A stretch of 62,945 nt of DNA from positions 1 to 62,945 of the forward strand of contig JAEUUZ010000061.1 of NCBI GenBank assembly GCA_016786765.1, given 5' to 3'. Made by a program: the position numbers and the translations under genes. The notes under the pieces are model-generated. The model searched no databases. It was not told the origin of the DNA and saw only the letters and a list, made by a program, of their open reading frames with translations. The DNA comes from Chitinophagales bacterium. Lineage in GTDB: Bacteria; Bacteroidota; Bacteroidia; Chitinophagales; LD1. Positions 1-42,334 of this stretch are shown in pieces (the stretch's first letter is position 1; each line of letters starts with the position of its first letter).

Positions 1-22
1 TTCTATTTGAGATTTTGATGAA

Positions 23-90
23 AAAGTGTTTAAGTCTTTATCCCTAAATGAGTTTTACTCAGATTGAAGCGTAGTTTACTTAAACACTTT
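23..90 (+). repeat. Large dyad with nested hairpin at window edge
   Basis: A perfect 13-bp inverted repeat (arms 23-35 and 78-90, AAAGTGTTTAAGT and its complement) encloses 42 bases that hold a second small hairpin (TGAGT at 49-53, ACTCA at 57-61). The right arm is followed by a pyrimidine-rich CTCTTTT. It could be the terminator of a plus-strand gene lying left of the window, but the loop is long for an ordinary intrinsic terminator. No gene is visible in bases 1-495. Confidence 0.55.
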
Positions 91-132
91 CTCTTTTAGC
101 TAAATTCAATATTTCTATTCAAATACGAACCT

Positions 133-203
133 AAAGGATTGGAGCGAAAATCCTTTTGTGAGGCACGAACAAAAGATTGTAGCGGAAAGCCCGTTAAAAC
201 GCC
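133..203 (+). repeat. Structured dispersed repeat, copy 1 (degenerate)
   Basis: Two related cores, GATTGGAGCGAAAATCC (137-153) and GATTGTAGCGGAAAGC (175-190), flank a variable hairpin (TTTTGT 154-159, ACAAAA 169-174). The same order, AAATCC then a 21-22 base hairpin then GATTGnAGCG, recurs at 8469-8563 and, on the other strand, at 42040-42138. This copy is the most decayed: the right-hand part after the second core is not clearly recognisable. It lies beyond the 3' end of the lipoprotein gene at 496-1074. Confidence 0.6.
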
Positions 204-212
204 AAAGAAGTT

Positions 213-333
213 GAGGGATGTTGGTTGGGAGTTGAGGGTGGGGATAGAGGAGGGTTGGGAGTTGAGGGTTGAGGGTTGAGAGGTGGATAGAGTTGGGGGT
301 TGGGAGTTGAGGGTTGGGGGGAGGAAGGGGGTT
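213..333. repeat. G-rich minisatellite
   Basis: A strongly strand-asymmetric, G-rich tract built from imperfect units. The 16-mer GGTTGGGAGTTGAGGG occurs identically at 223-238, 253-268 and 298-313, separated by degenerate GAGGGTTG and GGATAGAG units. The tract has many runs of three or more G on the plus strand, so it could form G-quadruplexes. No credible reading frame crosses it. Confidence 0.8.
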
Positions 334-8431: not shown

Positions 8432-8468
8432 TTCGCTTTACATCGGAATTTATGATCGAAGCAACATG

Positions 8469-8563
8469 TTTGCGAGAGCGATGGCAGCGGAAATCCTCCG
8501 GCAATTCCTATTGACGGAGATTGCAGCGAACAGCGCGGTTCCGATTCCTAGAGGAACTCGCCC
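8469..8563 (+). repeat. Structured dispersed repeat, copy 2
   Basis: The best-preserved copy of the element. Order: GCGAGAGCGATGGCAGCGG (8472-8490) and AAATCC, a hairpin (TCCG-CAA 8497-8504 with TTG-CGGA 8511-8518, one G/A mismatch), core GATTGCAGCGAAC (8519-8531), then a second hairpin (GTTCC 8538-8542, GGAAC 8553-8557) and CTCGCCC. Copies lie at 133-203 and, inverted, at 42040-42138. It sits in the 170-base convergent gap between the YkuD_2 gene and the PurF-like gene, so it would be part of a 3' untranslated region. Confidence 0.75.
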
Positions 8564-8601
8564 AAATCTTAAATCATAAATAAAAAAATCGCAAACGCCT
8601 T

Positions 8602-38740: not shown

Positions 38741-39043
38741 GATGAATTTAATTTAATTTTATGGTATAATAAATAATCCGTATTTGGAAGCCCTTTCGGA
38801 AAACGGAATGCAAACTTAGAAATAATTCTCAACAAAAAAAGTGTGGAAACAAAAAAAATCTGTCCAATTTGCCCTTTTTGGGAAAAATTTGTATTGGTGT
38901 TGAAAATGGTCGGTTTTTGTTAAAACTTCTTTTGCCAAGCACAATTGAGTAAACCGACTTGATTTACAGCAAAAGCTAGCTAAAATTAGAGAAAAAAGTA
39001 CGGACGCCTTACGCATCCGCACTTAACCTTTAAACACAAAACA
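38741..39043 (-). promoter_or_regulatory. rplL promoter and leader, 303-base gap
   Basis: On the minus strand TAAGTTTG (38818-38811) is a perfect -7 box, preceded by a T-rich tract (TTTTTTTG, 38840-38833) in the -33 area. The leader before rplL is about 65 bases. The remaining upstream part (38842-39043) is AT-rich with no convincing gene; a 68-codon open frame there looks random in composition. No rplJ remnant is seen. Confidence 0.6.
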
Positions 39044-40231
39044 CTATTTTATTACCATTATCTTACCTGTAGAAACAATCTTAGCCGCATCATCCTGTAA
39101 CGAGAACCAATAAAAGCCCTCCGCTAATTTGTTGTTCATCTGTACTTCCAATATGTTGCCCTTATTTGTTGGCACTACAGTCTCAATTATTCTACCGGAA
39201 ACATCACGCAAAATTACGGCACTTACATTGCAGTGCTTCCCCATTGCAACACTGAACCGATTCTCTGTTACCGGGTTGGGGTAAGTGCTCCAATTGTTTC
39301 CAACTGCATCTTCGTTCGTTATCCCAGTGGGTAAGGTAGGTAGAGCAGTGGAAATAAAGGACGTAGTCATGTTGGTGAATAATGGACTCGAAAAATTGAC
39401 AGCCATTTGATAGTTATTTAACCCCTCTCTATAAAAATTATATCTGAAGGAAGTGGGACTTGATTGCTGCCATTGAGACATACCAAAGCCCGAAAGCAGG
39501 GCACTTGGAGCTGGACTACCCCCTAAATAGAAGCTATCTCTGCAAGCGGCTAACGTTTTTACTTGCAGCACGGGAACATCACTGTTAAAAACTGTTTGCG
39601 GAGGGAGTTTCAATATTCCATACCCAATTACGCTATCTAATCGTAAAAAATAGAAGGCCTGCTGTAAGGATGCTTTTGAAAGCCCTGCAGAAGCCACTGT
39701 TAATTCCATATTGACAACATTTCTCCTTTGACTACTCCAGGTAGAATCCATGGATGCAGGGAAAGCAATTAACGGTCGAGGATCAGTAGGATAGTAAATG
39801 ATATTGTCTAATATAATCAGACTATCGGCAGTATTTCCCGTCAACGCACCTAATCCGTAACGTTGTTCAGGCACATGAATCCCAATAGCATTCGCCCCCG
39901 AAGCTGTAATCGCATAATATTGATCAAAATTATAGCCCAGAGAAGAGGTTAGTCCTTTGTACAAACTGGTTAGCTTATATTGAGCGTCAGGAAAATTTGG
40001 ATCGCCACTCAAAAGTGTAACATCATTGGTAGAGGGGGAAACAGGTGTCGCAGTACTATAATCCCAAACCTGTGCGGCTCCTCTACTGGGTATCGAACTT
40101 ACATTAGCCGTTATTTCTGCAACAGGTGTAGAGGCAAGGGGAAACGGATAATTACTTTGATCTAAAACAATTTGGCTAAATGCCGAAACATAACAGCCTA
40201 AAAACGCAAAATTGGTAATGAGCTTTTTCAT
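39044..40231 (-). CDS. Secreted protein with T9SS type A sorting domain
   Basis: A 395-residue protein with a signal peptide (1-19, ending SAFSQ) and a T9SS type A tail from about residue 310. The tail shows NWSTYPNPVTENRFSVAM, VILRDVSGRIIETV, KLAEGFYWFSLQD and an ending KIMVIK. The middle is beta-rich, with repeated aromatic and Asp-Ser segments and no catalytic motif; fragments such as WDYSTATPV and SLGYNFDQYYAITASG resemble surface proteins of unknown function in this phylum. It is read away from rplL's promoter region and diverges from the TPR-LuxR regulator. Confidence 0.85.
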   Translation of the reverse strand: MKKLITNFAFLGCYVSAFSQIVLDQSNYPFPLASTPVAEITANVSSIPSRGAAQVWDYSTATPVSPSTNDVTLLSGDPNFPDAQYKLTSLYKGLTSSLGYNFDQYYAITASGANAIGIHVPEQRYGLGALTGNTADSLIILDNIIYYPTDPRPLIAFPASMDSTWSSQRRNVVNMELTVASAGLSKASLQQAFYFLRLDSVIGYGILKLPPQTVFNSDVPVLQVKTLAACRDSFYLGGSPAPSALLSGFGMSQWQQSSPTSFRYNFYREGLNNYQMAVNFSSPLFTNMTTSFISTALPTLPTGITNEDAVGNNWSTYPNPVTENRFSVAMGKHCNVSAVILRDVSGRIIETVVPTNKGNILEVQMNNKLAEGFYWFSLQDDAAKIVSTGKIMVIK

Positions 40232-41992: not shown

Positions 41993-42039
41993 CCGATACG
42001 AATTAGTAATTACAACGAGCGCATGGAGTTTCTCATTTA

Positions 42040-42138
42040 GGCGAGTCCCGCTCGGAATCGGGATTGGGTGTTGCGTTCCAATCTTTGCCATTGGAATTGG
42101 CAAAGGATTTCCACTTCACCCCCGCTCGCGAGATAGCG
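42040..42138 (-). repeat. Structured dispersed repeat, copy 3
   Basis: Read on the minus strand this is GCGAGCGGGGGTGAAGTGG, then AAATCC, a perfect 7-bp hairpin (TTTGCCA/TGGCAAA, plus-strand 42084-42104), GATTGGAACGCAAC, then a second hairpin (TCCC/GGGA, plus-strand 42046-42063) and ACTCGCC. Order and spacing equal copy 2 at 8469-8563, while stem sequences differ. The 342-base gap 41993-42334 is otherwise empty of genes. A 71-codon open frame that crosses it is this repeat read as protein. Confidence 0.72.
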
Positions 42139-42334
42139 ATTGAATTATATTTTAGTTGTCTTTGTGCTTCAGGCTTGGCGTAGTTTTCGACTACATTAAA
42201 GTGTAAGTGAACCTCCGCTTTAGTGTGCAAATAACGTAGATAATACATACTGAAGGTATCTTGGCAAAGAATACGATAGCAAATATGAAAGATGGATCAG
42301 CATTTCACCTGTGTAAAAAGTACGCTGTGATTGG

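What the first reader, a model, noticed from the sequence alone, without database searches (positions are those of the whole stretch)
8469..8563. A dispersed, structured intergenic element present three times
Copies at 133-203 (+), 8469-8563 (+) and 42040-42138 (-) share the order: AGCG-containing core ending AAATCC, a hairpin of 21-22 bases, then GATTGnAGCG or GATTGGAACG. Copies 2 and 3 also share GCGAG upstream and CCGATTCC plus ACTCGCC downstream. Conserved blocks around a hairpin of fixed size but variable sequence are not expected by chance and fit neither a transposon nor a CRISPR. It may be a new repeat family or a structured RNA module.
Basis: seen in the sequence. Interest (0 to 1): 0.72.

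Follow-up and report, generated by a model that had tools for sequence, protein, structure and literature searches.

The report
Flavo-1 repeats, targeted by a transposon
The three look-alike sequences are copies of a known but unexplained bacterial hairpin element called Flavo-1; in this genome it is a repeat of about 75 to 80 copies that behaves more like mobile DNA than an RNA gene, and a transposon that carries a matching predicted guide RNA has inserted into it, including into the first copy of this window.

Summary
The genome holds about 75-80 copies; related genomes range from none to over 130. Rfam's 76-nt model is incomplete: 63 complete copies show an extra covarying outer stem and, in 35 of them, a distal hairpin. 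Both 3x3 internal loops keep GNA/GNA in 121 of 126 cases. Copies lie between genes without preference for strand or gene arrangement, pair almost only by Watson-Crick pairs (1.4% G-T) and show no target duplication. I read them as non-autonomous, REP-like mobile DNA, not an sRNA. RAYT genes sit beside Flavo-1 in two genera, a suggestive but unproven mobiliser. Window copy 1 is not intact: an IS110-family element is inserted in it. All nine resolved IS ends in the genome lie inside Flavo-1 copies, and the IS left end folds into a bridge-RNA-like structure whose target guides (CGCTTCAATC, TTAGGGA) match Flavo-1. One homologous IS fully matches its own different target, another on one side only. 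Family known; extended structure, repeat biology and IS110 targeting are new.

The parts
1..136 (-). Left end (LE) of an IS110-family element, cut by the contig end; reads on the minus strand. Core dinucleotide (TC on the IS strand) at 137-138
   Evidence: Identical at six contig ends; C41 carries the full element with its ORF
62..71 (-). Predicted left target guide (LTG) of the bridge RNA, CGCTTCAATC, equal to the Flavo-1 target
41..47 (-). Predicted right target guide (RTG) of the bridge RNA, TTAGGGA, reverse complement of the right target TCCCTAA
137..202 (+). Flavo-1 copy 1, right part only (IS-interrupted, short form, ends ..CCCGTTAAAACGC)
   Evidence: RF01705 50.1 bits at 124-200; junction seen by comparison with the other IS ends
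8448..8566 (+). Flavo-1 copy 2, complete long form with its conserved 5' tail and CCCAAA 3' tail; paired structure 8472-8561
   Evidence: RF01705 49.9 bits; extended structure
8472..8476 (+). Outer stem, 5' arm GCGAG (pairs with 8557-8561 CTCGC)
   Evidence: Helix 1: 98.3% of cells paired, 4 of 5 pairs with changes on both sides
8557..8561 (+). Outer stem, 3' arm CTCGC
42036..42153 (-). Flavo-1 copy 3, complete long form; paired structure 42129-42041, tails either side
   Evidence: RF01705 37.4 bits, below the gathering score; extended structure

Best explanation
The element is Flavo-1. I propose that it works as a non-autonomous, REP-like mobile DNA repeat. One strand of it folds, when single-stranded, into a long imperfect hairpin: an outer stem, an inner stem with two GNA/GNA internal loops (sheared G-A pairs), an apical hairpin and an optional distal hairpin. 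Copies spread between genes by an enzyme acting in trans on that folded strand; the best candidate is a RAYT (Y1/HuH transposase, subclass-2.6-like), genes for which are present in this genome and sit beside Flavo-1 in two genera. The repeats are in turn the landing site of an IS110-family element whose predicted bridge RNA carries guides that match the Flavo-1 5' arm, as IS621 does with REP elements of E. coli. Shown: family membership, extended covarying structure, copy number, intergenic and strand-neutral placement, IS insertion into Flavo-1, guide-target match. Inferred: mobility itself, single-strand folding in vivo, the RAYT as mobiliser, bridge RNA activity.
For: Membership. Copy number: 58 copies over the gathering score and about 72 at E<0.01 in this 3.6-Mb genome; own models find a few more near known ones but none new in 380 kb sampled elsewhere. 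Patchiness: 71 matches here, 0 in the one congener (87% complete), 0-4 in family members, 132 in G013, present in 42 of 199 genomes of the order. Structure: 26 pairs in 35 long copies, 91.9% of cells paired against 76.7% shuffled, 130 cells changed on both sides, covariation 0.413 against 0.145, 0/500 shuffles; 20 pairs in 28 short copies likewise. DNA rather than RNA: only 19 G-T cells among 1372 paired cells; folded as DNA, the element strand is more stable than its complement for both complete window copies (-20.1 v -15.9; -20.5 v -18.0 kcal/mol). GNA/GNA in 121 of 126 internal loops. Placement: 27 codirectional, 11 convergent, 10 divergent; element strand same 16 / opposite 11. RAYT: three genes here; 39 of 42 Flavo-1 genomes of the order have Y1_Tnp against 108 of 157 others (counted by hand); Flavo-1 within about 150-320 bp upstream of RAYT genes, antisense to them, in G000:C14, G075:C22, G075:C8 and G085:C382. 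IS110.
Against: No clean empty site was found, so transposition is inferred from distribution. No target duplication is seen, which REP-type elements do not need but which leaves insertion unproven. The RAYT genes here have their own, different flanking palindromes, and G037 has at least 10 Flavo-1 copies but no Y1_Tnp match at the threshold used; the co-occurrence figure is not corrected for phylogeny. In genus g36 the four RAYT units share the stretch up to Flavo-1, so they count as about one association. No GTAG-type tetranucleotide of classical REPs is seen at the foot.
Confidence: 0.62

Rival explanations
1. Flavo-1 is what Rfam files it as, an RNA: a dispersed small RNA or a UTR element with a trans or cis regulatory role.
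For: Strong covariation fits RNA as well; Rfam type 'Gene; sRNA'; several 5' transcribed regions in F. psychrophilum coincide with Flavo-1 hits (PMC9723704).
Against: No strand or gene-arrangement preference (same conclusion in PMC9723704); 1.4% G-T pairs; copy number from 0 to more than 130 among related genomes.
Confidence: 0.2
2. Flavo-1 is a mobile repeat, but moved by something other than a RAYT (an unidentified transposase, or recombination and replication slippage at hairpins), the RAYT neighbours being chance or shared preference for intergenic sites. This shares the first half of the best explanation and contests only its mobiliser.
For: RAYT genes have their own palindromes; G037 has Flavo-1 and no Y1_Tnp match; most RAYT genes of the order have no Flavo-1 within 1.5 kb.
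Against: Same relative orientation and short distance in two families of the order; enrichment 39/42 v 108/157.
Confidence: 0.4
3. Copies are kept because the host uses them, for example as bidirectional terminators, mRNA 3'-end protectors or nucleoid or gyrase binding sites, as REPs in enterobacteria.
For: Always between genes; strong hairpin; precedent with REPs (PMC3733652, PMC2817692 abstracts).
Against: No enrichment between convergent genes (11 of 48 classed sites); absent from many relatives.
Confidence: 0.12

Closest known systems
Flavo-1 RNA motif (Rfam RF01705; Weinberg et al. 2010, PMC2864571)
   Same: All three window copies match its model over its full length; Bacteroidota; intergenic.
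   Different: Here the element is shown to be larger than the 76-nt model (outer stem, distal hairpin, tails), highly repeated and strand-neutral; Rfam calls it an sRNA gene.
REP / BIME elements with RAYT transposases (TnpA-REP), especially RAYT subclass 2.6 of Bacteroidetes with 'atypical secondary structures' (PMC6006769)
   Same: High-copy, intergenic, imperfect palindrome with internal mismatches; RAYT genes of that type in the genome (FWQ, YIHNNP, YSS motifs; NHVH in one, SHVH in the other two); target of IS110 elements.
   Different: 85-105 nt structure instead of 20-40 nt; no GTAG foot; RAYTs of this genome are flanked by other palindromes as well.
IS621 / IS110-family elements with bridge RNA that insert into REP sequences (PMC11208160)
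   Same: DEDD plus Transposase_20 domains, non-coding left end of 224 nt that folds into two stem-loops, guide-target match on both sides of a dinucleotide core, insertion into a palindromic repeat.
   Different: Target is Flavo-1 and the core is TC; transposase of a Bacteroidota subfamily. Activity not tested.

Membership tests
Flavo-1 (RF01705) | Covariance-model score at or over the gathering score (42 bits) | tested here: met
   50.1 and 49.9 bits for copies 1 and 2; copy 3 scores 37.4, under it, but shares the whole extended structure
Flavo-1 (RF01705) | Consensus pairs of the model kept | tested here: met
REP element | High copy number, dispersed between genes | tested here: met
   about 75-80 copies
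REP element | Palindrome of 20-40 bp with a GTAG/GTGG (or CGTC) tetranucleotide at the foot | tested here: not met
   85-105 nt; foot is AATGCC|GCGTG; definition from PMC3733652 and PMC6006769
REP element | Cognate RAYT gene flanked by the repeat | tested here: inconclusive
   Flavo-1 beside RAYT in G000:C14, G075, G085, but RAYTs also carry other palindromes closer by
MITE | Target-site duplication | tested here: not met
   Longest direct repeats across the ends no longer than for shuffled flank pairs
IS110 family (the element in copy 1) | DEDD_Tnp_IS110 and Transposase_20 domains | tested here: met
   E 3.8e-22 and 3.2e-22
IS110 family (the element in copy 1) | Bridge RNA with target guides that match the insertion site on both sides of the core | tested here: met
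   By sequence: LTG 10-nt match, 0/2000 shuffles; RTG 7-nt match, 27/2000; homologue in G095 matches 10 and 11 nt of its own different target; G075 homologue matches on the LTG side only
IS110 family (the element in copy 1) | Recombination activity guided by that RNA | not testable with these tools
   needs an experiment

The most novel reading that the evidence does not exclude
Flavo-1, filed since 2010 as an RNA, is a single-stranded-DNA hairpin repeat of the Bacteroidota, mobilised by subclass-2.6 RAYTs through recognition of its GNA/GNA loops, and is the natural target that a bridge-RNA-guided IS110 lineage carries guides for.
Probability: 0.3. Interest if true: 0.6.

Novelty: new member of a known kind. 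Interest (0 to 1): 0.4.

Why it matters
It would explain one of the most widespread orphan 'RNA' families of the Bacteroidota as mobile DNA, correct its boundaries in Rfam, give the atypical Bacteroidetes RAYTs a candidate substrate, and add a natural IS110 element with readable guides and a repeat target for bridge-RNA work. It also explains why this assembly breaks where it does.

Tried and rejected
CRISPR or riboswitch: no such Rfam match at the copies. rRNA operon as the cause of the repeated contig end at window 1-131: rejected, the sequence is the end of an IS110 element with its ORF on C41. Empty sites: the purF-like neighbour in relatives has no YkuD neighbour, the G005 v G002 region is rearranged, joined flanks find no undisrupted paralogue. 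RAYT as strict requirement: not supported, G037, G088 and G093 have Flavo-1 without a listed Y1_Tnp match. Target duplication: none. A scan of named genomes gave only distant relatives and no usable empty site. Literature: few papers in the held library mention Flavo-1, none on function; subscription papers are not held.

Full report
What was checked. Rfam's covariance model of Flavo-1, RF01705, which was made without this window, finds these three and no others in the window. Copies 1 and 2 pass the curated gathering score; copy 3 (37.4 bits against 42) does not, but has E = 2.3e-4 in a search of 63 kb against 4227 families.

Copy number and distribution. In the genome of the window (3.62 Mb, 66 contigs) RF01705 gives 58 places over the gathering score and about 72 with E below 0.01. 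Two models built here from long and short copies find nothing beyond an already known copy in 380 kb of other stretches (the stretches were picked at mid-contig, not at random) and a few further ones next to known copies, so about 75-80 is close to complete. [quoted passage not shown] In 199 genomes of the order 42 have it (there only the best 22 candidates per genome were scored, so counts are lower bounds).

The element is larger than the Rfam model. Parsing every copy shows an outer stem outside the Rfam model: GCGTG/CACGC, GCGAG/CTCGC, CCGTG/CACGG, GCGTT/AACGC, GCATG/CATGC, GCGCG/CGCGC, GCACT/AGTGC and more. The stretch between inner and outer stem is either 5-6 nt (short form) or about 18-24 nt (long form), and in the long form it makes a second hairpin such as CCGCTTCTTAGCGG. 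The counts of paired cells exceed all 500 shuffles and all slid controls; the structure was drawn from these sequences, so the percentage paired is flattered, but changes on both sides (130 and 58 cells) are not explained by that. Conservation reaches about 24 nt upstream (AAATAATTTTCAATGAACCnnAATGCC) and 5-8 nt downstream (CCCAAA) of the stem. Two 3x3 internal loops keep G..A opposite G..A in 121 of 126 cases while the middle base varies; such GNA/GNA loops are known to form sheared G-A pairs in DNA and RNA (own knowledge). This is also why both arms read GATTGnAGCGnAAAnCC.

RNA or DNA. Placement is between genes: 27 codirectional, 11 convergent, 10 divergent neighbours, the rest at contig edges or within short, doubtful ORFs; where genes run one way the element agrees with them 16 times and opposes them 11 times (genes from a simple ORF caller). 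The F. [quoted passage not shown] Of 1372 paired cells only 19 are G-T, low for an RNA under selection for pairing, as expected if Watson-Crick pairing in DNA matters; this is an argument, not a proof. Folded with DNA parameters the element strand is more stable than its complement for copies 2 and 3.

Mobiliser. The genome has three Y1 transposases with the FWQ, YIHNNP and SS motifs of subclass 2.6, a Bacteroidetes RAYT group said to be flanked by 'atypical secondary structures' found elsewhere in the genome (PMC6006769); the HuH motif is NHVH in one and SHVH in the other two. Their closest flanks are other palindromes (GGCGCAAGAATGCAG.., TCGCAAGTTTAGCG..). Yet a Flavo-1 copy lies about 150 bp upstream of the C14 RAYT, antisense to it, and a related repeat stands in the like place at C7. 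In genus g36 the same arrangement recurs: G075:C22, G075:C8 and G085:C382 have Flavo-1 240-320 bp upstream of the RAYT, antisense, and G085:C148 has a left-half remnant there. The stretch between is alike in these units, so they are copies of one arrangement. Y1_Tnp occurs in 39 of 42 Flavo-1 genomes and 108 of 157 others, without correction for kinship. I take RAYT mobilisation as plausible but unproven. No clean empty site was found.

IS110 in copy 1. Window 1-131 is identical to five other contig ends. On C41 the same end leads into a 327-aa ORF with DEDD_Tnp_IS110 and Transposase_20 domains. The five left ends that continue into unique sequence all join a Flavo-1 copy after GGATTG, each followed by a different copy; the four right ends found all join the left half of a Flavo-1 copy, GCGTGAGGG or GCGTTAGGG. 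Flavo-1 is about 0.2% of the genome, so nine of nine is not chance. The left end folds into two stem-loops (-38.2 kcal/mol, z -3.1). The first loop carries CGCTTCAATC, the same as the left target (0 of 2000 shuffles), then a small hairpin, then TTAGGGA, the complement of the right target (27 of 2000). Homologues of 46-47% identity in G095 and G075 are inserted in other sequences; the G095 element has guides that match its own target on both sides (10 and 11 nt), the G075 element matches on the left side (9 nt) but poorly on the right. All three fit a TC core and a left donor guide of ATAGAAAT. This is the bridge-RNA layout of IS621, which targets REP elements (PMC11208160). Activity is inferred.

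Verdict. The finding is a known family, correctly noticed by eye. What is added: its full structure, its repeat character in this genome, a candidate mobiliser, and its use as landing site by an IS110 element with a predicted guide, which accounts for copy 1 and for contig breaks of the assembly.

Noticed in passing
window 1-131; C41:11-141, C19 both ends, C6 start, C3 end: Several contig ends of the assembly are copies of one IS110 element collapsed by the assembler; right ends lie at the ends of C66, C63 and C7.
   Followed up: yes
L084:5012-5117, L085:7127-7223, L078:3954-4050, L059:4969-5065, L081:4762-4858: A second, related repeat family with the same outer ends as Flavo-1 (AATGCCCGCGTGAAGGATGCGGAGGGCTTGG...GCACGCCCAA) but a different inside; weak matches (24-28 bits) to the long-form model.
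   Followed up: partly
L084:5672-6363, L085:6357-7050, L083:5688-6370: RAYT genes flanked by their own inverted palindromes (GGCGCAAGAATGCAGCA.. and TCGCAAGTTTAGCG..), copies of which occur elsewhere in the genome.
   Followed up: partly
L026 (C7:223-300) and L002 (C48:16211-16288): Two Flavo-1 copies with the same left part and similar left flank but different tails, as if rearranged or recombined inside the element.
   Followed up: no
window 208-330: G-rich near-tandem stretch of GTTGGGAGTTGAGGGTTGAG units just after Flavo-1 copy 1; similar stretches follow some other copies (for example C3:98913).
   Followed up: no
right flanks of many short-form copies, also window 8566-8590: AT-rich words such as AAATCTTAAATCATAAATC recur beside the 3' end of several copies; no explanation.
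   Followed up: no
window 38986-39070 (-): Sub-threshold match to the L20 leader (26.5 bits against 58.7); mostly its terminator hairpin, probably chance.
   Followed up: no
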